Positions 28,401 to 64,000 of a stretch of DNA of 64,000 nucleotides are shown piece by piece; the first letter of the stretch is position 1; every line of letters starts with the position of its first letter. Both the position numbers and the translations under genes were made by a program. Below the pieces are notes generated by a model. That model worked only from the letters and a program-made list of their open reading frames with translations, ran no database searches and was not told where the DNA came from. Origin of the DNA: Argopecten irradians (lineage: Eukaryota > Mollusca > Bivalvia > Pectinida > Pectinidae); assembly GCF_041381155.1 (NCBI RefSeq), contig NC_091134.1, positions 17,238,008 to 17,302,007 of the forward strand, given 5' to 3'.

Positions 28401-31400
28401 CATCCTGTCCCCTAGCCCCTGTCTCATCCCATCCTGTCCCCTAGCTCCCTGTCTCATCCCATCCTGTCCCCTAGCTCCCTGTCTCATCCCATCCTGTCCC
28501 TAGCCCCCTGTCTCATCCCTCTGCCCCCTGTCTCATCCCATCTGTCCTAGCCCCCTGCCCCCTCTCCATCCCATCCTGTCCCCTAGCCCCCTGCCTCATC
28601 CCATCCTGTCCCCTAGCCCCTGTCTCATCCATCCTGTCCCCTAGCTCCCTGTCTCATCCCATCCTGTCCCCTAGCCCCCTGCCTCATCCCATCCTGTCCC
28701 CTAGCCCCCTGTCTCATCCATCTGTCCTAGCCCTGCATCCCTCCTGCCCTATCCGTTCACTCTGCCCCCCTGTCTCATCCCATCCTGTCCCCTAGCCCCT
28801 GTCTCATCCCATCCTGTCCCCTAGCTCCCTGTCTCATCCCATCCTGTCCCCTAGCTCCCTGCTCATCCATCCCATCCTGTCCATCTGTCCCCTAGCTCCC
28901 TGTCTCATCCCATCCTGTCCCCTAGCTCCCTGTCTCATCCCATCCTGTCCCCTAGCCCCCTGTCTCATCCCATCCTGTCCCCTAGCTCCCCTGTCTCATC
29001 CCATCCTGTCCCCTAGCTCCCTGTCTCATCCCATCCTGTCCCCTAGCTCCCTGTCTCATCCCATCCTGTCCCCTAGCCCCCTGTCTCATCCCATCCTGTC
29101 CCCTAGCCCCCTGTCTCATCCCATCCTGTCCCCTAGCTCCCTGTCTCATCCCATCCTGTCCCCTAGCCCCTGTCTCATCCCATCATCCTCCATCCCCCCC
29201 TACCCCCCTGCCTCATCCCATCCCTGTCCCCTAGCCCCCTCTCATCCCATCCTGCCCCTAGCCCCCTGCTCATCCCATCCTGTGCCTGCTCATCCCATCC
29301 TGTCCCCTAGCTCCCCGTCTCATCCCATCCTGCCCCCTAGCCCCCTGCCTCATCCCATCCTGTCCCCTAGCCCCCTGCCTCATCCCATCCTGTCCCCTAG
29401 CCCCCTGTCTCATCCCATCCTGTCCCCTAGCCCCCTGTCTCATCCCATCCTGTCCCCTAGCTCCCCTCTCTCATCCCATCCTGCCCCCTAGCCCCTGCCT
29501 CATCCCATCCTGCCCCTAGCCCCCTGCCTCATCCCATCCTCCCCTAGCCCCCTGCCTCATCCCATCCTGTCCCCTAGCCCCCTGCCTCATCCCATCCTGT
29601 CCCCTAGCCCCCCTATCTCTCCCCTGTGCTCATCCCATCCTGTCCCCTAGCCCCCTGCCTCATCCCATCCTGTCCCCTAGCCCCCTGCCTCATCCCATCC
29701 TGTCCCCTAGCTCCCTGCTCATCCCATCCTGTCCCCTAGCCCCCTGTCTCATCCCATCCTGTCCCCTAGCCCCCTGTCTCATCCCATCCTGTCCCCTAGC
29801 TCCCCGTCTCATCCCATCCTGTCCCCTAGCTCCCTGTCTCATCCCATCCTGTCCCCTAGCTCCCTGTCTCATCCCATCCTGTCCCCTAAGCCCCCTGTCT
29901 CATCCCATCCTGTCCCCTAGCCCCCTGCCTCATCCCATCCTGTCCCCTAGCCCCTGTCCTCATCCCATCCTGTCCCCTACCCCCTGTCTCATCCATCCTG
30001 TCCCCTAGCCCCCTGCCTCATCCCATCCTGTCCCCTAGCCCCCTGTCTCATCCATCCTGCCCCTAGCCCCCTGCCTCATCCATCCTCCCGCCCTCCTCAT
30101 CCCATCCTGCCCCCTAGCCCCTGCCTCATCCCATCCTGTCCCCTAGCCCCCTGCCTCATCCCATCCTGTCCCCTAGCTTCCCGTCTCATCCCATCCTGTC
30201 CCCTAGCTCCCTGTCTCATCCCATCCTGTCCCCTAGCTCCTTGTCTCATCCCATCCTGTCCCCTAGCCCCCTGTCTCATCCTATTCTGTCCCCTCCCATC
30301 CTGTCATAGTTTGAAATATGGAGGAGGAAGCAAAAATATGTAATACATAAAGATGTTTCTGGTTTTTATCTCATATTCTAACTAAAAATGTCCAGATCAA
30401 GTTGAAAAATGATCTTTGCTTCACTATCAAGTAAAATATTGCATCAACATTATGGTGTATTTTGCTAGATATCAAGAATTTGCTCCTTGTTTGATTGAAT
30501 TTTGGTGCAGTTTTAAATTAAGACTTAATTAACATAATTTTTACAATTAAATAATTGTTTGCTTATCACAATGATTTTTTTGATATCACATTTTTAACAA
30601 ATGTCACTATAATTAAAATAAAATCCTACTTTATCAGAGAACCCAGCTCACGAGGAAGATGAGTACAGACTGGAAGTATTAATAGCGCTCCGGAAGCTGG
30701 AACGACTGGACAAGGACGAGTACTCTGAGGAAGAGAGGAATGAAGCAGAGGAGATATATGAACAACGCCTAAAGGAAGATGCAGAGAGAGAAGTAGGTTG
30801 AGAACTTGGTTTAAAAAAAAGTCCAGTTTAAAAAGCATATAAATTTCCCTCCCCGATTGAGATACATTCAAAGGCATCCTAAACAATTATTTCAGATCCC
30901 AATGAAATTAAAAAATAGTGACTTCAATGCTTACAATTAATTTTCCAGACTACTTTATAAAATGAAATATGTTTACACGTATGATTCCATTGATTTTTTC
31001 TAAGGGATTATTTTTTCCAAATCAATACGTAGCGTCAATGTTTCTGTTGTGATTTCACAATAACGTCGGGTTTTGGCGCCATTCTCGGATATTTTTTTTC
31101 CATTGTGGAATGAAAAAAATGAATAGGCCAATCAGAAAGCCAGAAACAAAGAGAAAATGAATTATTTTTATTTAAAATCTTGGCGATATGTTGTTTAAAG
31201 TCAATTTTTTTTTCAAATTATCAAAGTGTCAGCTTGTTTCCTTTGAATGATTTCCAGAAAATGATAACAATAATGATCACAAAATTTATTTTGTGGATGG
31301 TTGTGAAAGAGTGTTGTTCAGAAGTTGCACCTTTGTTAAATGGTATTTTATCCTGCGGCCAAACAGCAATTATTGAAAAGACAGACGATAATTTGGAAAG

Positions 31401-44572: not shown

Positions 44573-47500
44573 ACATTGGCTGTGTTCTCCGTAGCTGCAA
44601 TATTATAGCTCAAAAAACTTATAGACAGAAAATGGTGTCGTCTTTAGAGCTACAATTGGTGCCTATTACTGCTAATGGAGCAAAGTAATGATAAACGTAC
44701 TTGTTTGATATGACTTAGCTACTAGGCAATAAAACTGAACCACTTTAAATATAAAATTCTCATTGAAGCATTATATTTTTACATAATACATATGAAAGTC
44801 TTTCTGAAGGGAACTTATACGGCAAGTCACAAATTGTGAATTTGACGTGTGAGCGGTACGGTAGATATTAAGAATAGTAGTTATGTTTGTTTTGGACAAA
44901 AATAATATGTAAATGCATGTATACGCATAAAATAGTTGGAAACCTACAAAAAAGTATAGAAAACTGTGCCCGAGTGATTTTCGGAGGCAGTGCTCCACTA
45001 CGACACATAGGGACCAATTCGTACCCGGCCGAAAGGTATAGACCGGGTACGTATATTCGTTCTAGGGAACCACGTGCACACTGGATTTCATAAATGTATA
45101 TTTTCATATATTTTTGCAGTAAACAAGTCACATGCTTATACGCCATTCATGCCATTGGCCGAATAAAGAAATGTATTATGGGTAACTAGTGATCACGTGA
45201 TTGTGTGTTTACTTCCAAATATAGTGATAGTTTGCTTGCCATTTTTTCGGAAAAATTGATTAAGTAGAAAATATTTATACACCAAAATGTTATTATATAT
45301 TGCATGCATATCATTTTGACTTGCGCATATGTACTGTTTTACTATAAATAACGGACTGAAATGAGTTATAAAGCTGTCATTTCCACGTTTTATCTATAAA
45401 TGATATAATGAGAATTGATAAATCCAATCGGTCAAATCCATGTGTGCTATTGGAGCAGTGCCTCAGAAAATCACTCGGGCACACTAAACTTTGTTTTAGG
45501 TTTCCAATTATTTTAATCGTATACATGCATTTATGTATTAGTCGTTTCCAAAAGAAACATAAGGACCATTCTAAATATCTACTTCACCACTCATTAGACG
45601 TCAAATTCATAATTTTTGGACTTGCCGTATAATTTTCCTTCGAAAAGACCATAATATTTATAGGTGGAAAAAAGTGAATTTGATATTTTATACGGTTCAG
45701 TTTTATTGCCTAGTAGGTAAGAGCTATAAAACAAGTAAGATAAAATTCGTACAGACGTTTTAATTAGGGTTTGCACAAATATTTCCATTAGTAGTAATAG
45801 TGGAGTGATTTGTTTACATTTTGCGATGTCTAATACGGAGCATGCGGTGATTTTACGTACGTTAATTTTACAATTTCAGAACCAGACGAATTAAGATTTT
45901 CATTAACATTGAAAGGTGCTATTAGAAGTAAAATTTTTCCATGGTTTGTAAGATGGTTGAAATTTGGCAAAATTTACCCTACGTTAGCGAGGGACGGGAT
46001 CGGGGGAGGGAGGGGGGACCCTATTTTAGCTGGGGACGGCGCATGGGTGGGCCCCGCGTGGTTACGTTACGTATATATCCGTTAGGCCTACATTAATCTG
46101 CAGAATGATCTCCTCACTTAAAATCAATTTAGATGAGTCTAATTTCCATATACATGATTTATAAGTTCATATAAGTTTATAAAGTTCATATAAGTTTATA
46201 AAGTTCTACATTGATATTGTCGGAGACCTAGATATCTAGGTCTCTGATATTGCAGACAAATAATAATCAATCATAAGCTCTGAAATAAATTTTGATTCAC
46301 ATATCTTATTTATTGATTTTGTTCGTTTGTTTATATCATTTCGGATGGAATACCTATCGACATTATATCTGCATTGAAAACACGCAAAAGTTGCAGATAA
46401 TGTGTTATAATTCCAGCATATTTATATTTTACACTTCTGAATCGTATCATTAGTTAATTATGTACATACCCAATGCATAGACATATTAACAGACACAGAT
46501 GGGGATACAGGTATATAGTTGTGTAATAATTGCACCTAATATTTAGATAGAGTACCTGTAACTATCTACAGGAACATACCTGTAGGTCTGTTGTTATGAC
46601 CACCAGGGCCTTTGATTTTCCACGTTACCCCCATTCGACTCATTCCCTGGGGCCATTCCCTACCCAAATACCAAACGTAACACCTTAATTATCTGATATG
46701 ATGATCAGTCAAGCGTCACAGCATGTAGGTATACGTCATTGTTACCTAATTAATCTATCTCCAGGGGGTCCGTTTATAACGACAGTCTAGCTACATCTGT
46801 ATGTACCTATATACTTTTAACTAGTAAACTAAAGTCTACGCTCTAGACTTCTCCATGTAGTTGAGTTCCAAACAAAACAAAATAAAATGATAATTTTAAC
46901 TAAACCTAGATTATCTACTTATCTTGTGAAAATCTACTTTATTTCATTTGAAAATTTATGCAAGTATTTTTATTGTATTTTTCTCAAGTATTACTGTACA
47001 TATAGTATGTGTTCAATCAAGACAATACCCCCTGAGCTAACTAACTAACATCCTGGCTTAGGTATGTACAGGTACTTGTCCTAAGTTGCAACATATTTAC
47101 ATAGTGTTGTAATTAATTACCTGAATGAAAGAAAGATATAAACATACACATATAGCTCACCGGATTCCATGTGTAGTTGGAATATCGAGTAATTGTAATT
47201 TCTGAATGAGATTACATGACACTAGTTTATAATTTATAAGGCTAACCAGTTACAATATAGCGGCAAAATAACACTCACTATGATATTCATGGACGTGCTC
47301 ATCCAGGCAGCCGTCGCCGGCTTTCGGCCTCCTCACCAATACATTGTACCTCCGTCCCCAGTATATTCACAATTTCATCAAATCGCCACTGAATTACACC
47401 AAAAAATTCGTTACAAATTAATAAACAAACATCTAACATCAATTATGTATATTTACACACAGATTTAAGTACGTAAAACCACCGCATGCTCCGTATTTTG

Positions 47501-47905
47501 ACATCGAAAGATGTAAACAAATCACCCACGCCCCTACTCGCATGACTTATGTGGCTTAGCTTGAACCAATCGTGCATCCTTGGCTTCAATCAACACATCT
47601 CATCGGTAGAATGGAAATCACTCTACATGCAAAAATTGTTGGTTTTTAATTTTCCTCTCAATATCTGTCGCATCGAAAAAATGTAAACAACTGCCGTCGG
47701 CCATTTTCTCGCTTCGAGCTCCCCAAATGCCGCCTCAGCACCCCCTAAGTCAGAGGTACGCACCTCCTGCGTACCCCGATTCCGTTAACCTTCTTCACTG
47801 TGAATAAGCACCAATTGTTGCTCTAAAGACGTGTACGATACCATTATCCGTCTTAAAGTCTTTTGAGCTACTATATCACAGCTACCTATACATGCACAAT
47901 GTAAT
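44573..47905. repeat. Nested inverted-repeat cluster (foldback/DNA-transposon debris)
   Basis: Three inverted pairs are visible. (1) 44573-44690 against 47812-47905, sharing 'caccaattgt...gctctaaagacg' and 'ttttgagct'. (2) 44700-45000 against 45450-45735, sharing 'cagttttattgcctagtag', 'acttgccgtata' and 'aaaatcactcgggcac'. (3) 45785-45865 against 47465-47535, sharing 'accgcatgctccgtatt' and 'tgtaaacaaatcac'. Pair 1 could be the ends of a 3.3-kb element, with others nested inside. No transposase was recognised. GC-rich patches (45985-46060, 47695-47790) lie within. Confidence 0.7.
46221..46246. repeat. 20-bp perfect palindrome with flanking extension
   Basis: AGACCTAGATATCTAGGTCT at 46224-46243 is its own reverse complement and extends outward with one mismatch per side. 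It lies inside the inverted-repeat cluster. Confidence 0.9.
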
Positions 47906-48473: not shown

Positions 48474-48489
48474 TAGCGGCAACCGTTAA

Positions 48490-49115
48490 ACTTTGGTCGT
48501 TGTCAGTGTAATGTGACCGAGTGGGACGTTCGGTGTCTTCGACGGCATGCTTCAGTAAGACAAAACTATAAAAGGTCAAGAGTTCCACTATTACAAAGAG
48601 ACACAACACGGACATATTAACAATTTATAAACGGAATCGCAAGCAGTAACTACATATTATACATAAACAGAACCACTATATGGGAAACTCTCCAATATTT
48701 AGAAACGGTACCACCAGCGTTTATGAATGGAAATAGCATTACGGCACGGGAATGGTATATCATTCATAAACGGAACCGCTACAGAGAATTGTTCATAAGT
48801 CAAAACCCGGATTGCTAACGGAAGCTGCACACCTACCATAAACGAGATCAATAGCAGTAACTGTACATCATTCAGAAGCTGGTTATATAGCACTATACAA
48901 AAGGCAAGAGTTCCACTAAACAAGCACACACAACATGAATATACCACAGTCTCCCAAATACACACCCGCACTTCATACTCGCAACAAACCGCATACATGG
49001 GAGACTGTCCTTTCATGACCCTGGCGGTTTATAGGACGTTAATTTAATAAATCAATCGAACAAACAAACCGCTAGCGGTAATAACCGCTAATCAAGGGAA
49101 CCGCTAGCGGAAACT
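48490..49115 (+). repeat. Copy 1 SINE modules and 36-bp palindrome repeats
   Basis: In order: 'gttgtcagtgtaatgtgacc', a TATA-like 'aaactataaaaggtcaagag', a shortened run of degenerate 36-bp units, then a second SINE 3' part with 'catacatgggagactgtcct' and the tail 'gaccctggcggtttatagga' ending in 'aatcgaacaaacaaa'. After it come two CCGCTAGCGG palindromes (49069, 49104). About 280 bp present in copies 2 and 3 are missing. Confidence 0.75.
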
Positions 49116-49175
49116 GTGCAGCATTCATCAAACCCGTCCGCTAGCACTCTCTCCATCTAAACAGAGACAGTAGTA

Positions 49176-49217
49176 TGACGTAATAATGGTGGTGACGAAA
49201 AGCTTGTTATGACGTCA
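49176..49217 (+). promoter_or_regulatory. CRE/ATF site cluster, copy 1 promoter
   Basis: TGACGTAA at 49176-49183, TGACG at 49193-49197 and a full palindromic CRE TGACGTCA at 49210-49217 lie 100-140 bases upstream of the start codon. The same cluster is kept in all three copies. CREB/ATF/XBP1-type factors bind such sites; actual use is inferred. Confidence 0.5.
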
Positions 49218-49315
49218 AATACATGTTGCCAGGCTGCGTAGCAATAGGCCATGGTGGAGATGATGGGTCTCTACGCGAGTAGCTGATTGCTCGTTTGATA
49301 ATCGCGAGTACCAAA

Positions 49316-50360
49316 ATGGATATCAAGATCTTACTGATATTTATGGTAATTCTTTGCGCCGCACAGCAGGGCCCTGTTGCTTATCGAGGCTTTACATGGT
49401 AAGTTTAGATATTCTCCGGGATATTTTGTTTTTACATAGCGAAGGCAAGCTCGTCTTGGAACTATCAGAAGGTTCATTTATTTGATGCCATTTTAATGCG
49501 TTGTTTTGTTTTACCCTTTTGTTTTAACTTACTTTTGTAGCGTGGAACCCGAAGTAGGATACATGGAAAGGATGATAAATTACTTCGTCGCCCGAAAAGT
49601 CGAGAAAACATGTCCAACTCACGGAGCTTTATTGTTGGTAAGTATAATAAACTTTTACCTCGGCCGACGTATTGTAAAATACATTATCTACAATCACTAT
49701 TTTTAACGTTTCGTTTGTTTTATTCGGTGTGTATAAAACCCTAGAAATTAATAAGCATTTTTTTCCTTTCAGAGAATCGGAAACGAGGTCTTTTGTACCG
49801 TTCTATGTGCAATAACATCACTAATATTGGTCTACACGTATATGTATGCACTGTTGGTTGGAAACCATGCAAGGAAGTTCTGGAAAGCCATCGGTGTGAT
49901 GTTTCGAGAATGGAGAGCTCGTAAGTACAAATGCATATCTTGATATAATGTATCATCCCCCAGTTGATCAAACTCTGTAATCAGATAATGTTTATCAGAA
50001 CCGTTCGGTGTGTCATATATTGTAGTCCCATTGCACGTTTTAAAACATATATTATCGGTTTGTACAGGTCGATCCCTCTGTCGCTTCTGCGGAACCGACC
50101 CGTGCCAGGCCAGGAGAACTTCCTGGAGACGCCATGAGGCCCGCATGTTAAACCATATGGTCGATTTCGAAAAGCGATCTCACGCGATGTGGATGTTCAG
50201 TCTTGGACTGGAGCTCTCTGCAACCCTAACAAAGGAGCTACCCCGAGACGAGAAGTACTGGGCACGAAAATATTGTGCCGACTTTCAGGAGGAACACATG
50301 GCACTTTTTCCTTTGTGCGTACAACGCCAGATCAACGCCTGGTACCCTTTGCCACGCTAG
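49316..50360 (+). CDS. Unknown single-pass membrane protein, copy 1 (intact)
   Basis: Exons 49316-49398, 49541-49637, 49773-49920 and 50068-50360 join with matching phases (2, 0, 1) and GT-AG sites to give 206 residues. Residues 1-16 (MDIKILLIFMVILCAA) look like a signal peptide cleaved before QQGP. A short ectodomain with Cys28 and Cys52 follows, then a hydrophobic span at about 66-89 (VFCTVLCAITSLILVYTYMY...). The tail is basic, then cysteine-bearing (CRFCGTDPC at 114-122), ending in YWARKYCADF and FPLCVQRQINAWYPLPR. The TAG is the last codon of exon 4 and is followed at once by GTAAGG, so a 3' UTR exon from 50669 is likely. I do not recognise the protein. The end loosely resembles the P2X7 C-terminal ballast domain, but this is tentative. 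A short upstream ORF (ATG near 49252) precedes the start. Confidence 0.65.
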
Positions 50361-52284
50361 GTAAGGACATTCTTAATCACAAGTAATTTCTGATAATATG
50401 TGGTGTTTAATAACAAGGCAGCTTTTTCCTGACTAACCTTACTCATTGCTTGTTGATAAACATTGCTAATATATTGACCGCACATTCTGACGGCAGTATA
50501 ATCATGTCATGTACATTAGACTATATAACTTCTTTAAAAATAAAGTCCCTTCGGGTCTAACTACGTCTCGTAACGAACTCATCCTTGTAGATGTAGATGA
50601 TGGAATAATAGGTCTTTACTGTAACTGTATAAGTCTGTCATTCTAAAGATTGAATTGTTTTCTTGTAGATTCGCTGAGCTGTTCGAAGAGAAAAATGTCG
50701 ATGATGGCACAAAGGTGGTGACCACGCCAGGGCGCCCTGCTGGCTCCTTCCGTTTCTCTTTCCAGTATTATCTCCAACTCTCGTTCTTCTATGTTTCTTG
50801 GTGTCGGCGTGTAGATACGAGGATATGTCGACACCCAGTTAACATATTCACGATTTGGAGAACATTGGAGTTTTGTTTAAATAATAATTTCAGTAGCATC
50901 TTGGATGTCGATGGTTTTTCGTATTTATGATGTGATCAATGGTGCCTTTGTGTGTCTTGGTCATTGATGTCTTAACTGGGAAACCATTAAAATCAGTTGC
51001 TATTGTAACTTTGAGTTGTGTTATGACTAAGCCCTAAAAACATTTGAGTGTTGTAGTACGTCAATTTGTTTGCGTGGTACAAGAGTAGGTAGCAGATGTC
51101 AGAAGGACAGCCTGGCCATGTGTGATATTCTCACTAGGCGGGAAACCCCTAGTTTGAGACATGCATAAAAAATTCTATATACAATGTATTCTAAAATTGG
51201 TGCAATCAGTATGAATAGTTCTTTTCATTTTCTAATATAAACATGAATATTTTTTTCTGGGAAACAACGGAAGTGCGTCTACACCGGAAAAGTCAGCTTT
51301 ACTTGTGATCTATGATTTTCTAACAAAAAGGATATTCGATTTAAGTAATGACTTTGTATGCTTCACTGCCATGTTAAACGCCTGTCCTTCGGAAGTATAT
51401 TAATAGGGATACACTTGATGTAATATTTCGGTATAAAAACACACAAAAAGACACTTGCCATGCTGTTATCAAAGGAATGGCGGAATGATATAGAATGTTT
51501 GACTCTCCGCGTCCTTTTTTAAACACCAGTACACCTGTCTCAGCATACATTGTTTATTGATATGCCATTTGGGCTACAGGGTAACAAATGTATCTTGATA
51601 TACACAGAGAAAATTTCTCATGTATTTTACAGGAATCACGCTCTTAAAATTTGGAATGAACAAATAGGCGAATGCTCAACTTTGGCAGAAAATCCGTACG
51701 AGTTATCTTTCTTTGGTCATTTATAACTAAAATAACTTAATTGTATGCGTGTTGATAATCGCCGTGTTGATAAGACTAATCATTGTCATTTATAATAGAT
51801 TCTGGCCAAATGGCTACATACATACACTTACCTGTACCTCAAATTTTGGGGAAATGAAACAGAATTCATGGATTATGGAAAAAGCATCAGTATCAAAATT
51901 TTGTTTATCAAAATTCGTCAGATAAACCTGTAAACGAGTAAGAAAAAATAAAGAAACAGCTAAAACGTATCCCTGTCGAATGCCCCGATGGAATTTAAAA
52001 GCGGGTGTCTGACATAATAGCAGCATGCGAGTGTCACATACCGTACAGTGTACATATTAAAACACAAGAAACACCAAAACGTTGTACGTAATTGAATCAA
52101 TGTACACACGGATCCGAAATTTTTACACAGTCATGATGGTATAGTAACAAGTAATATAAACAGGATAATAAACACATTCCTATGTATGCAGTGTATAAGG
52201 AATAGTTGAATTGATGTATTCATGGTATTTTGAAACAACGGCGCCGTCTGTGGTACCTGTTTTACTGTTCATTAAAATATCCTT
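50361..52284. other. Copy 1 downstream exon and spacer
   Basis: After the stop comes an intron, then an acceptor 'gttttcttgtag' and a GC-richer segment from 50669 that is probably 3' UTR. Its 91-codon frame is not reachable in phase from exon 4. The rest to 52284 is spacer shared almost exactly with copy 2. No further gene is seen. Confidence 0.5.
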
Positions 52285-52294
52285 TAGCGGCAAC

Positions 52295-53220
52295 CGTTAA
52301 ACTTTGGTCGTTGTCTGTATAATGTGACCGGGTGGGGGTGTGTTGTCAGTATAATGTGACCGGGTGGGATGTGTTGTCAGTATAATGTGACCGGGTGGGA
52401 TGCTGAGTGAGACAACACTATAAAAAGGTCAAGAGGTCCACTACTACAAAGAGACACAACACAAAAATACCGCAGCTTCCCAAAAAACATAGATAAGTAC
52501 ACATCGCGGCACTGGGAGACCGTCCTTAGGTGACCCTGGCTGTTTATATGACATCAAACTTACTAAACCCAATTTTAAACAATTCATAAACGGAATCGCT
52601 TGTAGCAACTTTACATATTTCATAAAAGGGATTGCTAGCGGTAGTTATACAAAATTAATAAACGGGACCGGTTGTGATTACTGTACACAATTCATGAACG
52701 GGACCGCTAGCGGCACATGTAAACAATTTATAAACGGAATCGCAAGCAGTAACTACATATCATACATAAACATGACCGCTATATGGGAAACTCTCCAATA
52801 TTTAGAAACGGTACCGCCAGCGTTAATGAATGGAAATAGCATTACGGCACGGGAATGGTATATCATTCATAAACGGAACCGCTACCGAGCATTGCTCCTA
52901 AGTCAAAACCCGGATTGCTAGCGGAAGCTGCTCAACATCCATAAACGAGATCACTAGCAGTAACTGTACAGCATTCAGAAGCTTGTCAAATAGCACCATA
53001 CAAAAGGCAAGAGTTCTACTAAAAAGCATACACAACATAAATATACCACAGTCTCCCAAAACACACACCCGTACTTCATACACGCAACAAACCGCATACA
53101 TGGGAGACCGTCCTTTCATGACCCTGGCTGTTTATAGGACGTTAATTTAATAAATCAATCAAACAAACAAACCGCTAGCGGTAATAACCGTTAATCAAGG
53201 GAACCGCTAGCGGAAACATG
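52295..53220 (+). repeat. Copy 2 SINE modules and 36-bp palindrome repeats
   Basis: First comes a triplicated 'cagtataatgtgaccgggtg' motif, then 'caacactataaaaaggtcaa' and a SINE tail 'ggtgaccctggctgtttata' (to ~52565). Next are 36-bp units such as 'aattcatgaacgggaccgct' + 'agcggcacatgta' (52566-52985), then a second SINE 3' part ending in 'aatcaaacaaacaaa' (~53170) and two CCGCTAGCGG palindromes. Confidence 0.75.
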
Positions 53221-53265
53221 GCAGCATTCATTAAACGCGTCTCCGTCTAAACAGAGACAGTAGTA

Positions 53266-53307
53266 TGACGTAATAATGGTGGTGACGAAAAGCTTGTTGT
53301 GACGTCA
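53266..53307 (+). promoter_or_regulatory. CRE/ATF site cluster, copy 2 promoter
   Basis: TGACGTAA at 53266-53273 and TGACGTCA at 53300-53307, in the same arrangement as copy 1, about 100 bases upstream of the exon 1 ATG. Confidence 0.45.
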
Positions 53308-53404
53308 AATACATGTTGCCAGGCTGCGTAGCAATAGGCCATGGTGGAGATGATGCGTCTCTACGCGAGTAGCTGTTTGCTCGTTTGATATCGCGAGTAC
53401 CAAA

Positions 53405-54455
53405 ATGGATATCAAGATCTTACTGATATTTATGATAATCGCGAGTACCAAAATGCACAGCAGGGCCCTGTTGCTTATCGAGGCTTTACATGGTAAGTTT
53501 AGATATTCTCCGGGATATTTTGTTTTTACATAGCGAAGGCAAGCTCGTCTTGGAACTATCAGAAGGTTCATTTATTTGATGCCATTTTAATGCGTTGTTT
53601 TGTTTTTACCCTTTTGTTTTAACTTACTTTTGTAGCGTGGAACCCGAAGTAGGATACATAGAAAGGATGATAAATTACTTCTGCGCCCGAAAAGTCGAGA
53701 AAACATGTCCAACTCACGGAGCTTTATTGTTGGTAAGTATAATAAACTTTTACCTCGGCCGACGTATTGTAAAATACATTATCTACAATCACTATTCTTA
53801 ACGTTTCGTTTGTTTTATTCGGTGTGTATAAAACCCTAGAAATTAATAAGCATCTTTGTCCTTTCAGAGAATCGGAAACGAGGTCTTTTGTACCGTTCTA
53901 TGTGCAATAACATCACTAATATTGGTCTACACGTATATGTATGCACTGCTGGTTGGAAACCATGCAAGGAAGTTCTGGAAAGCCATCGGTGTGATGTTTC
54001 GAGAATGGAGAGCTCGTAAGTACAAATGCATATCTTGATATAATGTATCATCCCCCAGTTGATCAAACTCTTTAATCAGATAATGTTTATCAGAACCGTT
54101 CGGTGTGTCATATATTGTAGTCCCATTGCACGTTTTAAAACATATATTATCGGTTTGTACAGGTCGATCCCTCTGTCGCTTCTGCGGAACCGACCCGTGC
54201 CAGGCCAGGAGAACTTCCTGGAGACGCCATGAGGCCCGCATGTTAAACCATATGGTCGATTTCGAAAAGCGATCTCACGCGATGTGGATGTTCAGTCTTG
54301 GACTGGAGCTCTCTGCAACCCTAACAAAGGAGCTACCCCGAGACGAGAAGTACTGGGCACGAAAATATTGTGCCGACTTTCAGGAGGAACACATGGTACT
54401 TTTTCCTTTGTGCGTACAACGCCAGATCAACGCCTGGTACCCTTTGCCACGCTAG
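53405..54455 (+). pseudogene. Membrane-protein gene copy 2, broken in exon 1
   Basis: Exons correspond to 53405-53492, 53636-53732, 53868-54015 and 54163-54455. Exons 2-4 are open and nearly identical to copy 1 (YFCARK for YFVARK, Ile for Met in exon 2, Val for Ala in exon 4). In exon 1 a 16-base stretch of copy 1 is replaced by 21 bases that repeat 'aatcgcgagtaccaaaatg' from just upstream of the start. This shifts exon 1 to phase 1 at its donor while exon 2 needs phase 2. All ATGs in the exon share the wrong frame, and the ATG at 53341 meets a stop. The signal peptide therefore cannot be joined to the rest unless another first exon is used. Confidence 0.65.
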
Positions 54456-56384
54456 GTAAGGACATTCTTAATGACAAGTAATTTCTGATAATATGTGGTG
54501 TTTAATAACAAGGCAGCTTTTTCCTGACTAACCTTACTCATTGCTTGTTGATAAACATTGCTAATATATTGACCGCACATTCTGACGGCAGTATAATCAT
54601 GTCATGTACATTAGACTATATAACTTCTTTAAAAATAAAGTCCCTTCGGGTCTAACTACGTCTCGTAACGAACTCATCCTTGTAGATGTAGATGATGGAA
54701 TAATAGGTCTTTACTGTAACTGTATACGTCTGTCATTCTAAAGATTGAATTGTTTTCTTGTAGATTCGCTGAGCTGTTCGAAGAGAAAAATGTCGATGAT
54801 GGAACAAAGGTGGTGACCACGCCAGGGCGCCCTGCTGGCTCCTTCCGTTTCTCTTTCCAGTATTATCTCCAACTCTCGTTCTTCTATGTTTCTTGGTGTC
54901 GGCGTGTAGATACGAGGATATGTCGACACCCAGTTAACATATTCACGATTTGGAGAACATTGGAGTTTTGTTTAAATAATAATTTCAGTAGCATCTTGGA
55001 TGTCGATGGTTTTTCGTATTTATGATGTGATCAATGGTGCCTTTGTGTGTCTTGGTCATTGATGTTTTAACTGGGAAACCATTAAAATCAGTTGCTATTG
55101 TAACTTTGAGTTGTGTTATGACTAAGCCCCTGAAAACATTGCAGTGTTGTAGTACGTCAATTTGTTTGCGTGGTACAAAAGTAGGTAGCAGATGACAGAA
55201 GGACAGCCTGGCCATGTGTGATATTCTCACTAGGCGGGAAACCCCTAGTTTGAGACATGCATGAAAAATTCTATAAACAATGTATTCTAAAATTAGTGCA
55301 ATCAGTATGAATAGTTCTTTTCATTTTCTAATATAAACATGAATATTTTTTCTGGGAAACAACGGAAATGCGTCTAGACCGGAAATATCAGCTTTACTTG
55401 TGACCTATGATTTTCTAACAAAAAGGATATTCGATTTAAGTAATGACTTTGTATGCTTCACTGCCATGTTAAACGCCTGTCCTTCGGAAGTATATTAATA
55501 GGGATGCACTTGATGTAATATTTCGGTATAAAACACACAAAAGACATTTGCCATGCTGTTTTCAAAGGAATGGCGGAATGATATAGAATGTTTGACTCTC
55601 CGCGTCCTTTTTAAACACCAGTACACCTGTGTCAGCATACATTGTTTATTGATATGCCATTTGGGCTACAGTGTAACAAATGTATCTTGATATACACAGA
55701 GAAAATTTCTCATGTATTTTACAGGAATCACACTCTTAAAATTTGGAAGGAACAAACAGGCGAATGCTCAACTTTGGCAGAAAATCCGTACGAGTTATCT
55801 TTCTTTGGTCATTTATAACTAAAATAACTTAATTGTATGCGTGTTGATAATCGCCGTGTTGATAAGACTAATCATTGTCATTTATAATAGATTCTGGCCA
55901 AATGGCTATATACATACACTTACCTGTACCTCAAGTTTTGGGGGAAATGAAACAGAATTCATGGATTATGGAAAAAGCATCAGTATCAAAATTTTGTTTA
56001 TTAAAATTCGTTAGATAAACCTGTAAACGAGTAAGAAAAAATAAAGAAACAGCTAAAACGTATCCCTGTCGAATGCCCCGATGGAATTTAAAAGCGGGTG
56101 TCTGACATAATAGCAGCAAGCGAGTGTCACATACCGTACAATGTACATATTAAAACACAAGAAACACCAAAACATTGTACGTAATTGAATCAATGTACAC
56201 ACGGATCCGAAATTTTTACACAGTCATGATGGTATAGTAACAAGTAATATAAACAGGATAATAAACACATTCCTATGTATGCAGTGTATAAGGAATAGTT
56301 GAATTGATGTATTCATGGTATTTTGAAACAACGGCGCCGTCTGTGGTACCTGTTTTACTGTTCATTAAAATATCCTTTAGCGGC

Positions 56385-57310
56385 AACCGTTAAACTTTGG
56401 TCGTTGTCTGTATAATGTGACCGGGTGGGGTGTGTTGTCAGTATAATGTGACCGGGTGGGATATGTCGTCAGTATAATGTGACCGGGTGGGATGCTGAGT
56501 GAGACAACACTATAAAAAGGTCAAGAGGTCCACTACTACAAAGAGACACAACACAAAAATACCGCAGCTTCCCAAAAAAACATAGACAAGTACACACCGC
56601 GGCACTTGGGAGACCGTCCTTAGGTGACCCTGGCTGTTAATATGACATCAAAACTTACTAAACCCAATTTTAAACAATTCATAAACGGAATCGCTTGTAG
56701 CAACTGTACATATTTCATAAAAGGCATTGCTAGCGATAATTATACAAAATTAATAAACGGGACCGGTTGTGATTACTGTACACAATTCATGAACGGGACC
56801 GCTAGCGGCACATGTAAACAATTTATAAACGGAATCGCAAGCAGTAGCTACATATCATACATAAACATAACCGCTATATGGGAAACTCTCCAATATTTAG
56901 AAACGGTACCGCCAGCGTTAATGAATGGAAATAGCATTACGGCACGGGAATGGTATATCATTCATAAACGGAACCGCTACCGAGCATTTATTCCTAAGTC
57001 AAAACCCGGATTGCCAGCGGAAGCTGCTCAACATCCATAAACGAGATCACTAGCAGTAACTGTACAGCATTCAGAAGCTTGTCAAATAGCACTATATATA
57101 CAAAAGGCAAGAGTTCTACTAAAAAGTATACACAACATAAATATACCACAGTCTCCCAAAACACACACCCGTACTTCATACACGCAACAAACCGCATACA
57201 TGGGAGACCGTCCTTTCATGACCCTGGCTGTTTATAGGACGTTAATTTAATAAATCAATCAAACAAACAAACCGCTAGCGGTAATAACCGTTAATCAAGG
57301 GAACCGCTAG
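56385..57310 (+). repeat. Copy 3 SINE modules and 36-bp palindrome repeats
   Basis: Same layout as copy 2: TATA-like 'caacactataaaaaggtcaa', first SINE tail, 36-bp units (~56655-57040), second SINE 3' part with 'catacatgggagaccgtcct' and 'gaccctggctgtttatagga', then CCGCTAGCGG at 57272 and 57304. Here the units stay open for 138 codons as a 12-residue periodic peptide (FINGIAS...), probably by chance since 36 is a multiple of three. Confidence 0.75.
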
Positions 57311-57365
57311 CGGAAACTGTGCAGCATTCATCAAACGCGTCTCCGTCTAAACAGAGACAGTAGTA

Positions 57366-57407
57366 TGACGTAATAATGGTGGTGACGAAAAGCTTGTTGT
57401 GACGTCA
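57366..57407 (+). promoter_or_regulatory. CRE/ATF site cluster, copy 3 promoter
   Basis: TGACGTAA at 57366-57373 and TGACGTCA at 57400-57407, as in the other two copies. Confidence 0.45.
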
Positions 57408-57504
57408 AATACATGTTGCCAGGCTGCGTAGCAATAGGCCATGGTGGAGATAATGGGTCTCTACGCGAGTAGCTGTTTGCTCGTTTGATATCGCGAGTAC
57501 CAAA

Positions 57505-58540
57505 ATGGATATCAAGATCTTACTAATATTTATGGATTCTTTGCGCCGCACAGCAGGGCCCTGTTGCATTATCTAGGCTTTACATGGTAAGTTTAGATAT
57601 TCTCATTTTACATAACGAAGGCAAGCTCGTCTTGGAACTATCAGAAGGTTCATTTATTTGATGCCATTTTAATGCGTTGTTTTGTTTTTACCCTTTTGTT
57701 TTAACTTACTTTTGTAGCGTGGAACCCGAAGTAGGATACATGGAAAGGATGATAAATTACTTTCTGCGCCCGAAAAGTCGAGAAAACATGTCCAACTCAC
57801 GGAGCTTTATTGTTGGTAAGTATAATAAACTTTTACCTCGGCCGACGTATTGTAAAATACATTATCTACAATCACTATTTTTAACGTTTCGTTTGTTTTA
57901 TTCGGTGTGTATAAAAACCCTAGAAATTAATAAGCATCTTTGTCCTTTCAGAGAATCGGAAACGAGGTCTTTTGTACCGTTCTATGTGCAATAACATCAC
58001 TAATATTGGTCTACACGTATATGTATGCACTGTTGGTTGGAAACCATGCAAGGAAGTTCTGGAAAGCCATCGGTGTGATATTTCGAGAATGGAGAGCTCG
58101 TAAGTACAAATGCATATCTTGATATAATGTATCATCCCCCAGTTGATCAAACTCTTTAATCAGATAATGTTTATCAGAACCGTTCGGTGTGTCATATATT
58201 GTAGTCCCATTGCACGTTTTAAAACATATATTATCGGTTTTGTACAGGTCGATCCCTCTGTCGCTTCTGCGGAACCGACCCGTGCCAGGCCAGGAGAACT
58301 TCCTGGAGACGCCATGAGGCCCGCATGTTAAACCATATGGTCGATTTCGAAAAGCGATCTCACGCGATGTGGATGTTCAGTCTTGGACTGGAGCTCTCTG
58401 CAACCCTAACAAAGGAGCTACCCCGAGACGAGAAGTACTGGGCACGAAAATATTGTGCCGACTTTCAGGAGGAACACATGGCACTTTTTCCTTTGTGCGT
58501 ACAACGCCAGATCAACGCCTGGTACCCTTTGCCACGCTAG
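57505..58540 (+). pseudogene. Membrane-protein gene copy 3, broken in exons 1 and 2
   Basis: Exons correspond to 57505-57586, 57718-57815, 57952-58099 and 58248-58540. Exon 1 has lost two bases after the second ATG and gained one further on, and the frame meets TAG. Exon 2 is 98 bases instead of 97 (an extra T in 'aattactttctgcg'), a second frameshift. Exons 3 and 4 remain open and match copy 1 closely. The unit's 3' side is truncated near 59030. Both lesions make this copy very likely dead. Confidence 0.72.
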
Positions 58541-59030
58541 GTAAGGACATTCTTAATCACAAGTAATTTCTGATAATATGTGGTGTTTATAACAAGGCAG
58601 CTTTTTCCTGACTAACCTTACTCATTGCTTGTTGATAAACATTGCTAATATATTGACCGCACATTCTGACGGCAGTATAGTCATGTCATGTACATTAGAC
58701 TATATAACTTCTTTAAAAATAAAGTCCCTTCGGGTCTAACTACGTCTCGTAACGAACTCATCCTTGTAGATGTAGATGGTGGAATAATAGGTCTTTACTG
58801 TAACTGTATAAGTCTGTCATTCTAAAGATTGAATTGTTTTCTTTTAGATTCGCTGAGCTGTTCGAAGAGAAAAATGTCGATGATGGAACAAAGGTGGTGA
58901 CCACGCCAGGGCGCCCTGCTGGCATCCTTCCGTTTCTCTGTCAATAATATCTCCAACTCTTTTTTCTATGTTTCTTATGTCGGCGTGTAGATTACGAGAT
59001 ATACAAAGTTAACATATTCACGATTTGGAT

Positions 59031-60520
59031 TCAGTTGTTTGAAAAACAGTCGCACACCTATTTATAACGTCAGAAAGTTATCAAGTCACTATGATATTTA
59101 TTCGAAGACCATGTGATATGGCAGAATAGACCAAAGTTAGTTGATAACTATAGATAAACGTGTACGTGTCCTTCCGCATTCCTAAAACTCCCCTCTGACA
59201 CTATATCGTACAGATTTCATAGAAGCTTATCTATACATTAAGTACATGTAAGTAGGGTCAGTAACTGACCTGTCCGAATTATCAGGTCTTTCTTTCGTGA
59301 GTCTTTTAAAATAAATCCCTTAGGCCGGTCTATGTAGTAAGACGACAGAACGGCAGAATCTTTACTCATTATGTGCTTTATCTGTACATTGTAACTGTAA
59401 ATCGGGGTGTACTACAATCCAATACACTTGATATTTTCTTTTATTTTTCTTAACGCTGTGATCACAATCAAGTAGAAATCCTCCAGGATTCGTAAAAAAA
59501 AAAATAATTCTGAAGTTGTGGGTTGTTTTTTTCCAGAATCACGGAGTACATTACTTTAAATCATGTAAAGCAACGAAGACAATATTTAACCAAATGCAAT
59601 TTATCACCCTTTTTATACAATGTATCTTAATTTGATGTACTGGCATCGCGTGACTGTATTACGTTTTGTCACAAAAACCAATGCATCCATTAACCAAAAA
59701 CTTCCCACCCCGAAAATAAAAGTACTTTGTAATTACAAGTCAAGCTAAAAACATATATCCAATTAGAATCTGTAATGTCAGGTACAGGTAACGGTACCTT
59801 TCAGTGACGGCGTTTCTCCATAGGGAAGAAAAGTAAGTGAACTATGCTGTCTTTTAAAAATTTCGATATCCACAAAATTGAACCTGTCAAATTGATTTAT
59901 TTTCTGTTTTCGGTGAGAAGTGAGTCGATAAATATGTATGACACCACGGATCCGTTATTGTAATCATACATTAAATCAAACAAATGCAGTTTTTATTGGC
60001 AAAATTGAATAATAAGTATCTGATGTTATACTATATATTTACTACTTGTTTATTATCCTATTAACCTTTTGATAGATCTACTATTATCGGACCACCATAA
60101 ATTTATTATCTCAGTACCATTTGGCGACATGTCCGTATATCTATTATCTAGAATAATTGTTAAAATGAAAACTTTAAATGGACGGATTTCCGGTTCTATA
60201 TATCGGTTATTGGGTGTGTAATATATTCATAGACTTTAGAAAGATAGCGATTGGTGTGGTAATCGTCTTACATTTAAATTACAAGACAAAAATAATCTTA
60301 TCCAAAACATTTCACAACAAGTGTTAGAGTTACGTCCCTTTAATCTTGATTTTTAAGAAATTGTAATGTACAAAGGTACACAACTCTGGTGATCCTAGAG
60401 AAATTGGACTTTTAAAGGTCGACTACGAGAACGAAATTTAAATATAAAGAAGATCATGTATCCATGATGTTTTACGATTTTTTATATAAATTAAGAAATG
60501 AAAAACACCATAGATATCTC
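59031..60520. other. Unique spacer; no gene seen
   Basis: AT-rich sequence with no counterpart in the other copies. Homology to the triplicated unit stops after 'gttaacatattcacgatttg'. No repeat or coding region recognised. Confidence 0.5.
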
Positions 60521-60521
60521 A

Positions 60522-62165
60522 ATCAGTGACCCCGTCATTTCAGCGTGACGACACTATAAATACGTCCGTCAGTGACCTCGTCATTTCAGTGTGACGACAC
60601 TATAAATACGTCCGTCAGTGACCTCGTCATTTCAGTGTGACGACACTATATATACGTCTGTCAGTGACCTCGTCATTTCAGCGTGAAGACACTATAAATA
60701 CGTCCGTCAGTGACCCCGTCATTTCAGTGTGACGACACTATAAATACGTCCGTCAGTGACCTCGTCATTTCAGTGTGACGACACTATATATACGTCTGTC
60801 AGTGACCTCGTCATTTCAGTGTGACGACACTATATATACGTCCGTCAGTGACCTCGTCATTTCAGTGTGACGACACTATAAATACGTCCGTCAGTGACCC
60901 CGTCATTTCAGTGTGACGACACTATAAATACGTCCGTCAGTGACCTCGTCATTTCAGCGTGACGACACTATAAATACGTCCGTCAGTGACCTCGTCATTT
61001 CAGTGTGACGACACTATATATACGTCCGTCAGTGACCTCGTCATTTCAGCGTGACGACACTATAAATACGTCCGTCAGTGACCTCGTCATTTCAGCGTGA
61101 CGACACTATAAATACGTCCGTCAGTGACCCCGTCATTTCAGCGTGACGACACTATAAATACGTCCGTCAGTGACCTCGTCATTTCAGCGTGACGACACTA
61201 TATATACGTCCGTCAGTGACCTCGTCATTTCAGCGTGACGACACTATATATACGTCCGTCAGTGACCTCGTCATTTCAGCGTGACGACACTATAAATACG
61301 TCCGTCAGTGACCCCGTCATTTCAGCGTGACGACACTATAAATACGTCCGTCAGTGACCTCGTCATTTCAGCGTGACGACACTATAAATACGTCCGTCAG
61401 TGACCCCGTCATTTCAGCGTGACGACACTATAAATGCGTCCGTCAGTGACCTCGTCATTTCAGTGTGACGACACTATATATACGTCCGTCAGTGACCTCG
61501 TCATTTCAGTGTGACGACACTATATATACGTCTGTCAGTGACCTCGTCATTTCAGCGTGAAGACACTATAAATACGTCCGTCAGTGACCTCGTCATTTCA
61601 GTGTGACGACACTATAAATACGTCCGTCAGTGACCTCGTCATTTCAGCGTGACGACACTATAAATACGTCCGTCAGTGACCCCGTCATTTCAGTGTGACG
61701 ACACTATAAATACGTCCGTCAGTAACCCCGTCATTTCAGCGTGACGAAACTATAAATACGCCCGTCAGTAACCCCGTCATTTCAGCGTGAAGACACTATA
61801 AATACGTCCGTCAGTGACCTCGTCATTTCAGCGTGAAGACACTATAAATACGTCCGTCAGTGACCCCGTCATTTCAGTGTGACGACACTATAAATACGTC
61901 CGTCAGTGACCTCGTCATTTCAGCGTGACGACACTATAAATACGTCCGTTAGTGACCTCGTCATTTCAGTGTGACGACACTATAAATACGTCCGTCAGTG
62001 ACCCCGTCATTTCAGCGAGACGACACTATAAATACGTCCGTCAGTAACCCTGTCATTTCAGCGTGACGAAACTATAAATACGCCCGTCAGTGACCCCGTC
62101 ATTACAGCGAGACGACATTATAAATACGTCCGTCAGTGACCTCGTCATTTCAGTGTGACTACAGT
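60522..62165 (+). repeat. 46-bp array with TATA-like and CRE half-site units
   Basis: About 36 head-to-tail units of 'gacgacactataaatacgtc' + 'cgtcagtgacctcgtcattt' + 'cagtgt'. Period 46 bp was checked by position (60547 to 60593). Variation is limited to a few sites: acc(c/t)cg, cag(c/t)gtg, tata(a/t)ata. Each unit holds TATAAATA or TATATATA plus three TGACG/CGTCA half-sites. A final unit sits at 62626-62672 beyond an inserted SINE. Confidence 0.97.
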
Positions 62166-62625
62166 ATATACGGCCTCCCATGTATGCGGTGTGTTGCGTG
62201 TATGTTGTGCGAGGTGAGTGTACTGGGAGACTGCGGTATGTTCGTGTTGTGTCTTCTTGTATAGTGGAACTGTTGCCCTTTTTATAGTGCTATATCACTG
62301 AAGCATGCCGCCGAAGACACCAAGCAACACACCCCATCCGGTCACATTATACTGACAACGGACGAACCAGTCGTCCCAGAGCAGTAACTTCCACTTTTAT
62401 AGACTTTGGTGTGTCTCGGCCAGGGGACAGAACCCAGAGCCTTCCTCACAAGGGCGAACGCTCAACTCAATGCCAAAAGTGAGGCGGTGCCAAGGGAGGC
62501 ATTAGGAAAGATAAAGTCAGTTAGGAAGAAGAGAAAATATAAGATCCTAAATTTAGTCGCCTTTTACGATCATGCAATAGGGGCAGCAGGTACAATTCTA
62601 ACGCCCTACCTGCAGGGCAGACGCC
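62166..62625 (-). mobile_element. SINE with tRNA-like head and TATA-like body, reverse
   Basis: Read on the minus strand: 'aattgtacctgctgcccc', then B-box-like 'ggttctgtcccctggccgag', 'gttgtcagtataatgtgacc', 'agcactataaaaagggcaac', and 'cgcatacatgggaggccgta'. The later part matches the modules upstream of the triplicated gene. The usual 3' tail (gaccctggctgtt...) is missing. The flanking 46-bp array resumes at 62626, so it interrupts that array. Confidence 0.7.
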
Positions 62626-62672
62626 CGTCAGTGACCTCGTCATTTCAGTGTGACGACACTATAATTTCAGTG
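62626..62672 (+). repeat. Outlying unit of the 46-bp array
   Basis: 'cccgtcagtgacctcgtcat' then 'gtgacgacactataatttca': one unit, decaying at its right edge, separated from the main array by the SINE. Confidence 0.85.
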
Positions 62673-64000
62673 TGGTCAAACTATATCTATAGTTACATCT
62701 ATCAAAGTTTAAACAATCACGTTATACAGTATTATCTTTTTTGAAGATGCTGATAAGAAGTAATCCATGATTTTAGGTAACAATTTAATTTACATTAAAT
62801 TATCTTTATACTAATTGATATTCAATGGGAAATACGTTATACGAAACAACTTATATGATAAAATCCCTTTTATCTGAAGCGTATTTACTTTAAAGGATCG
62901 GGATGAAGAAGGATATCTCAGTGATCTCTTGATCACTTGTCTGAAACTGGACAAATCACACTGGTCATTTCAGGTAAACTGACCAGCGGAGTTGTTATCT
63001 GACCCACCATAGCTTTTGTTGACACACGGCTGACCATAGAGTTCACTGATGTTGTTAAATAGCCATGAAATCCTACTTAAAATTCCTGTATCTGGTCCCG
63101 CTGACCGTCGGTCAAACGTGTGACAAATCTTCATGTTAACACCTTCAGGCTCAAGTCTTTTGGACCGTGTTGACATTTCTTCTTACTTCAATATTTGTGT
63201 CTGAATAGTAGTAGGTTGTTGTCACTACTGAATCAGCCACATATACACTGTATTATGTTTGGGATAGAGGCAGATTTAAATATACTAGCATACACTGTAT
63301 TATAAAAAGGTAAAAAAATCCATATATCTAGTCAATTGCTGCAAACAGAATATTTCATTGGTAATCTTAACCAATGTTCGAAAAAAGTATGTATGTTCTT
63401 ACTTAATTCGGAGTGGTATCCTGTATTACTTACAGAGAACATCCCTCTCTCCAGACCAATTAAAATACACATCATAGCAAAACATGACATCAGTCACATC
63501 ATCCCTTCAGACTGGCTAATCAAATTACATCTTCCCTATATTTGGAAACGAACTGGAAACGAACTGATGTGTTTACTCAGATTGGCCCTTCTATTAAAAC
63601 ATAATTTGAATTGCACATTTACAAATCTAATATTGTCTCTTATATTTTACAGACGCACATTTTCCAAAACAATGCTCATTACTATTTCCTCGCATATATT
63701 TGATAACTTCCTAATTAACCACACTATAGTATTGGTTTTTGAAAATGACATGGAGAATACTAGAGCTGCATTTTAATCCGATTGTGCAACTTTTACTATT
63801 ATATGTGAAGTAGGTTTGTGGTTTTATAATAATATGTGGGCTGGCCTACTCTGTGACCTGTCTAACCCGATCTATACTAATCCACAGGTGTCTATAATGT
63901 TATTAAATTAATTCTATTGTGACCCACATCCTACAATCGTATTTTTAGTATGTGTGCATGTAAAATGTACCTGAAAGTTAAGTCGATAGAAAACTAATAC
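62673..64000. other. Window end; one unexplained 146-codon ORF
   Basis: A plus-strand frame at 63336-63776 encodes a hydrophobic, Ile/Leu-rich 146-residue sequence beginning MLQTEYFIGN. I recognise no domain, and the surrounding base composition is the same AT-rich background. It could be a decayed transposon piece or chance. Nothing else is seen in this stretch. Confidence 0.3.

What the first reader, a model, noticed from the sequence alone, without database searches (positions are those of the whole stretch)
48474..59030. Recent tandem triplication of an unrecognised membrane-protein gene
Three consecutive ~4.1-kb units carry the same four-exon gene with its promoter and spacer, nearly identical even in introns. 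Only copy 1 has all phases intact; it predicts a signal peptide, one membrane span and a Cys-bearing tail. A young tandem family with mixed intact and broken members is typical of fast-evolving immune or stress loci, and I cannot name the family.
Basis: partly seen in the sequence, partly recalled or inferred. Interest (0 to 1): 0.8.

Follow-up and report, generated by a model that had tools for sequence, protein, structure and literature searches.

The report
Scallop-only multicopy membrane-protein gene family
Three side-by-side gene copies in a bay scallop genome are a small outpost of a family of dozens of copies, found so far only in scallops, that encode a small membrane protein of unknown job whose tail is kept intact by natural selection.

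Summary
48474-59029 carries three near-identical copies of a four-exon gene; unit 1 is shortened and unit 3 truncated. Only copy 1 is open throughout (206 aa).

The product is an annotated but unnamed Argopecten irradians protein (100%). All 55 clusters returned by the profile search are from four scallop genera. The same assembly holds about 93 last-exon copies (my count of the rows listed) in several arrays, with units of about 3.6 to 8.2 kb, and about ten single loci. Exon plan and proximal promoter are shared. So this is an offshoot of an older family, not an isolated triplication.

The protein looks like a signal peptide, short ectodomain, one membrane span and a cytosolic tail with four invariant Cys and a well-modelled helical end without a significant match among solved folds. 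The tail is under purifying selection (dN/dS 0.06-0.24 where measurable), which argues against an immune arms race. Kinship to the P2X7 ballast domain was tested and not supported. The array's right flank is duplicated at about 99.8% identity 4.8 Mb away, so recent rearrangement or misassembly is possible. Function is inferred only.

The parts
48474..59029 (+). tandem array, about 2.6 units, three gene copies
48474..52290 (+). unit 1 (3817 bp; about 0.28 kb of the 5' spacer of unit 2 is missing)
   Evidence: unit borders set by me
52291..56385 (+). unit 2 (4095 bp)
   Evidence: unit borders set by me
56386..59029 (+). unit 3, truncated some 0.5 kb after the gene
49166..49315 (+). proximal promoter and leader of copy 1, conserved in paralogues
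49176..49183 (+). distal CRE-like site TGACGTAA (TGACGTCA in B, C, D, C6, C9 and C10 paralogues)
49210..49217 (+). proximal CRE-like site TGACGTCA
49225..49244 (+). conserved imperfect palindrome GTTGCnnnGCnGnnnRGCAA
49316..49398 (+). copy 1 exon 1 (signal peptide)
49541..49637 (+). copy 1 exon 2 (most of the short ectodomain, with Cys52; the Cys28 codon spans intron 1)
49773..49920 (+). copy 1 exon 3 (membrane span and basic juxtamembrane helix)
50068..50360 (+). copy 1 exon 4, coding part to the stop (CxxCGTxPC knuckle and helical C-terminal domain, Cys193)
53405..54455 (+). copy 2 of the gene, frame lost in exon 1
53435..53455 (+). 21 nt in copy 2 exon 1 identical to copy 1's 5'UTR plus ATG (49298-49318) and not to copy 2's own variant: looks like templated replacement
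57505..58540 (+). copy 3 of the gene, frame lost in exons 1 and 2
59043..64000 (+). right flank, duplicated inverted at C1:12450920-12455878 without an adjoining array (61851-62299 not itself compared)

Best explanation
This is one small array of a multigene family so far seen only in Pectinidae. The family encodes a secretory-pathway type I membrane protein of about 200 residues: signal peptide, ectodomain of about 35 residues with two Cys, one membrane span, basic juxtamembrane helix, and a cytosolic domain with four invariant Cys followed by a compact helical end. Gene and proximal promoter are copied as a DNA unit by unequal exchange and segmental duplication, with sequence exchange between copies. 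Purifying selection keeps the tail while single copies decay. Most likely mechanism: the protein sits in a membrane and the cytosolic Cys4 (probably zinc) domain acts as a docking or adaptor module, expressed under CREB/ATF-type control, with many copies giving dosage. Shown: gene structure, family, arrays, selection pattern, conserved promoter. Inferred: copying mechanism, topology, zinc, adaptor role, CREB/ATF control, dosage.
For: Gene model and copies. Identical annotated protein. 55 clusters in the profile search at E<=10, by my tally of the printed names 12 Argopecten, 11 Pecten, 24 Mizuhopecten, 8 Ylistrum. 42 DNA and 212 exon-level matches in the assembly. Same exon plan in array types A, A', B and C. 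Little beyond the gene and about 150 bp of promoter is shared between A, B, C and D units. TGACGTCA in 10 of 11 upstream regions of 260 bp, three of them the near-identical window copies; 5 of 11 hold two, against 0 of 182 windows of 260 bp in window 1-47500. Cys52, 114, 117, 122 and 193 in 36 of 36 rows and Cys28 in 35 of 36 of A3, which holds 36 of the 55 clusters, chosen by me as full-length. dN/dS for residues 112-206: 0.07 (A/A') and 0.08 (B/C), whole protein 0.15 and 0.19; exon 4 alone 0.06-0.24 in the 13 of 55 paralogue pairs with a finite ratio. 9 of 16 type A/A' copies open throughout. C-terminal blocks from residue 141 at mean pLDDT 83-96. Species-specific expansions on older shared lineages.
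Against: No expression, localisation or binding data were available. Overall model confidence is moderate (pLDDT 77, pTM 0.39) and the Cys knuckle region is low (blocks at 52-60), so zinc is not shown by the model; weak zinc-ribbon Pfam matches over the knuckle in two members stay below the curated cut-off. 7 of 16 copies are broken. Copy 1 against the intact copy near C1:12566 kb differs by two nonsynonymous and no synonymous changes, both in the ectodomain, too few to judge. Some frameshifts and the array size could be assembly errors, and some unplaced contigs could be second haplotypes. CRE matches are consensus matches.
Confidence: 0.6

Rival explanations
1. Fast-evolving immune or stress gene family: copy number and ectodomain variation serve recognition of microbes.
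For: Large lineage-specific expansions; mixed intact and broken copies; the ectodomain and membrane part vary more than the tail.
Against: Ectodomain only about 35 residues and itself at dN/dS 0.18-0.38 in five pairs; the tail is strongly constrained; array copies are nearly identical rather than diversified; no Pfam domain above its cut-off.
Confidence: 0.15
2. Passenger or coding part of a mobile or satellite-forming element: copying is selfish.
For: Many dispersed loci and arrays with different unit lengths; dispersed repeats lie in the units and beside some single loci.
Against: Alignable blocks between loci cover promoter, exons and parts of introns without common element ends, by inspection; introns are conserved; no transposase domain above cut-off and no relative confirmed in viral contigs; the protein evolves under constraint, though element proteins can too.
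Confidence: 0.12
3. The tail is a strongly diverged P2X7 ballast (P2RX7_C) domain tethered to a membrane without the receptor.
For: Same register of the last motif P-x-C-x4-I-x3-[FY]-P as in the published ballast consensus (passages of PMC7016195) and in scallop ballast genes; hhalign picks that same register; Foldseek's weak PDB list has rat P2X7 at ranks 2 and 3 of 5, E 8.8.
Against: No PF20478 match in 12 members scanned; profile comparison probability 0.2%, 125 of 200 column shuffles and the reversed profile score as high; second Cys cluster absent and first one spaced differently; VIA-align matched P2X7 to model residues 1-99, not to the tail.
Confidence: 0.1
4. The three copies in the window are an assembly or haplotype artefact of the arrays near C1:12.43-12.68 Mb.
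For: Right flank recurs inverted at C1:12450920-12455878 at about 99.8-100%; copy 1 differs from three 12.55-Mb copies at 0.9-1.4% of intron sites, and from two of them at 0-1 synonymous sites.
Against: Window copies differ from each other by private substitutions and indels; the non-repeat left flank gave no second match among the 40 of 1892 candidates scored; the 12.45-Mb site has other sequence where the array would be. Even if true, the family and its other arrays remain.
Confidence: 0.2

Closest known systems
Uncharacterized Pectinidae proteins (e.g. Pecten maximus LOC117322831, Mizuhopecten yessoensis LOC110445794)
   Same: Homologous over the full length, same Cys pattern, about 200 aa
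   Different: Only names, no function; the window copy belongs to a subgroup of 205-206 aa that in the tree holds only Argopecten and Pecten rows
P2X7 ballast / P2RX7_C domain (PF20478) and standalone ballast proteins
   Same: Cys-rich domain on the cytosolic side (P2X7); final motif register P-x-C-x4-I-x3-[FY]-P
   Different: No profile similarity above shuffles, no LCC...CITT cluster, different Cys spacing, no receptor part
Tandemly amplified bivalve gene families (e.g. C1q-domain genes, PMC6835236; seen only in the search listing)
   Same: Expansion by tandem duplication in bivalves
   Different: Those have a recognised domain; here no known domain and strong constraint on the tail

Membership tests
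P2RX7_C / P2X7 ballast (PF20478) | match to the Pfam profile | tested here: not met
   no PF20478 hit among 12 members at E<=10, HMMER filters on
P2RX7_C / P2X7 ballast (PF20478) | profile-profile similarity beyond chance | tested here: not met
   probability 0.2%; 125 of 200 column-shuffled profiles scored at least as high
P2RX7_C / P2X7 ballast (PF20478) | three Cys clusters PxWCxCx2C, LCCRx3GxCITT, PSC..IR..FP | tested here: not met
   only the last has the same register; first is CxxCGTxPC, second absent (against the consensus)
P2RX7_C / P2X7 ballast (PF20478) | same fold | tested here: inconclusive
   Foldseek E 8.8 for rat P2X7; VIA-align covered model residues 1-99, not the tail
Scallop family | full-length sequence homology | tested here: met
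   55 clusters, all Pectinidae; 37 of the 55 cover 99-100% of the query by my count
Scallop family | four exons with conserved lengths and phases | tested here: met
   A, A', B, C: 83/97/148/290-293 after taking off the base past the stop; single C6: 83/97/124/about 293. The same automatic transfer failed for singles C1:30.9 (wrong exon 3) and C10 (unusable), not counted; D was not modelled
Scallop family | membrane insertion and zinc binding | not testable with these tools
   sequence inference only

The most novel reading that the evidence does not exclude
Scallops have amplified to about ninety copies a membrane-tethered cytosolic Cys4 helical domain that is either a new fold or a ballast domain stripped of its receptor, i.e. 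a new lineage-specific signalling module under CREB/ATF-type control.
Probability: 0.15. Interest if true: 0.65.

Novelty: new member of a known kind. Interest (0 to 1): 0.4.

Why it matters
The family is large, restricted to one bivalve family as far as searched, and strongly conserved in a domain without a recognised relative, so it is a clean case of a lineage-specific gene kept at high copy number under constraint. Arrays of different unit length around the same gene and promoter allow a test of whether gene dosage is selected. It also warns that the window's triplet cannot be read without the rest of the genome.

Tried and rejected

Mobile element: pairwise comparison of ten single loci and one unit showed no common element ends, by inspection of alignment ends only. 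RFX-type X-box for the promoter palindrome: considered from memory, spacing does not fit, not claimed.
Full report
What is there. The window is C1:17238008-17302007 of an 846-Mb assembly. The product of copy 1 is 100% identical to an annotated Argopecten irradians protein on a contig of 75,513,862 bases, the length of C1. Positions 48474-59029 hold a head-to-tail array with repeat spacings of 4082-4103 bp. Unit 1 is about 3.8 kb and unit 3 ends at 59029, so it is about 2.6 units with three gene copies. Exons are 97.3-99.2% and introns 98.8-99.3% alike between copies. Copy 1 is open for 206 codons over four exons with GT-AG introns and ends with the stop at 50358-50360. Copies 2 and 3 are broken by small changes in exons 1 and 2. 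In copy 2, 21 nt of 5'UTR plus start codon replace exon 1 sequence. They match the variant found upstream of copy 1 and not copy 2's own, which points to copying between units.

The family. A single-sequence search found 16 clusters at E<=0.001 and a profile search 55 at E<=10, all from scallops: 12 Argopecten, 11 Pecten, 24 Mizuhopecten and 8 Ylistrum by my tally of the names. The database does hold other bivalves, since a ballast query returned Crassostrea, Magallana, Mytilus and Pinctada. The search reaches only relatives that share short exact words, so more distant ones may exist. The tree of 36 full-length members (of the 55) has species-specific expansions on starred branches (9 Mizuhopecten, 7 Ylistrum and twice 3 Argopecten rows) and older lineages shared between species (P0042 with P0043, P0044 with P0048). 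The window copy lies in a starred group of three Argopecten and two Pecten rows; 13 of 33 inner branches are unresolved.

The genome. A DNA query found 42 matches and a protein query 212 exon-level matches, lower bounds by the tool's own statement; the list is cut. Counting last-exon matches in the listed rows, partial ones included, I get 93: 16 on C1 (13 near 12.43-12.68 Mb and the three here), 13 on C464, 13 on C487, 12 on C499, 8 and 14 in two places on C8, 7 on C190 and 10 single loci. Some unplaced contigs may be second haplotypes. Unit lengths are about 4.1 and 4.6-4.8 kb (C1), 3.59 kb (C499), 3.70 kb (C8, 36.3 Mb) and 8.2 kb (C190). A and A' units align over most of their length at about 85-88%. 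Between A, B, C and D alignments cover mainly the gene, or only its last exon for D, and up to about 150 bp upstream; B and C share about 320 bp more, and other shared bits are short and partly inverted. Of 16 type A and A' copies examined, 9 are open throughout. One B and two C copies modelled were open too.

Promoter. Of 11 upstream regions of 260 bp (three of them the window copies) 10 hold at least one TGACGTCA and 5 hold two; the exception is C1:33.06 Mb, where other sequence lies upstream. All 11 hold the imperfect palindrome GTTGCnnnGCnGnnnRGCAA, with GATGC instead of GTTGC at C1:33.06 Mb. In window 1-47500 0 of 182 windows of 260 bp hold the 8-mer; in a wider set that includes the single loci's own promoters it is 12 of 522. 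CREB/ATF control is inferred from the motif.

Selection. By Nei-Gojobori counts, A against A' gives dN/dS 0.15 overall and 0.07 for residues 112-206; B against C gives 0.19 and 0.08. Over five pairs (A/A', B/C, A/B, A'/C, A/C6) the ectodomain gives 0.18-0.38 and the span with juxtamembrane helix 0.25-0.42. The signal-peptide value of 0.52 (A/A' and B/C) rests on 3 changes each. Copy 1 against two 12.55-Mb copies has 2 and 4 changes, too few to judge; one pair reads 0.84. On exon 4 alone 13 of 55 paralogue pairs have a finite ratio, 0.06-0.24; in the others synonymous sites are saturated or, for D against C9, unchanged. A codon-model test was not run.

P2X7 ballast. I noticed the shared register P-x-C-x4-I-x3-[FY]-P and tested it. 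The scallop genome holds 68 exon-level PF20478 matches, from which and from a database search I built a ballast alignment of 18 rows. Profile comparison gave probability 0.2%, 125 of 200 column shuffles scored at least as high, and none of 12 members hit the Pfam model. Rat P2X7 appears in Foldseek's list at E 8.8, but the second look aligned it outside the tail. It may work like a membrane-attached ballast, but it is not filed as one. Ballast consensus motifs come from passages of PMC7016195.

Placement. The right flank recurs inverted on C1: 59043-61850 at 99.8% over 2808 columns and 62300-64000 at 100% as rounded, together C1:12450920-12455878, where the array is replaced by other sequence. 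The left flank is a dispersed repeat to about 47803 and then gave no second match among the 40 of 1892 candidates scored. The array therefore sits at an edge of a recent inverted duplication, or at a misjoin. I cannot decide between these.

Verdict. The gene is a member of an unnamed, amplified scallop family that looks functional. Its function is open, with a membrane-anchored docking domain as my best guess.

Noticed in passing
genome G000, e.g. L040-L047: 68 exon-level P2RX7_C (PF20478) matches in this scallop, several nearly identical and dispersed over contigs.
   Followed up: partly
59043-64000: Right flank duplicated inverted at C1:12450920-12455878, about 99.8%.
   Followed up: partly
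60523-62168: 46-bp satellite, about 36 copies, part of the duplicated flank.
   Followed up: no
27931-30294: 30-bp C-rich satellite with strong strand skew.
   Followed up: no
1-1166: 19-bp tandem repeat, about 64 copies.
   Followed up: no
46900-47803: Dispersed repeat of about 0.9 kb with many copies, mostly 80-92% identical, on many contigs.
   Followed up: no
50358-50668: The stop codon TAG (50358-50360) is followed directly by GTAAGG, a donor-like site, with an acceptor-like TTTTCTTGTAG ending at 50668: possible 3'UTR intron.
   Followed up: no
49316-50360 against the A' copy: Synonymous divergence (dS 0.23, 27 of 134.7 sites) exceeds intron divergence (40 of 417 sites) between A and A' copies; cause unknown.
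   Followed up: no
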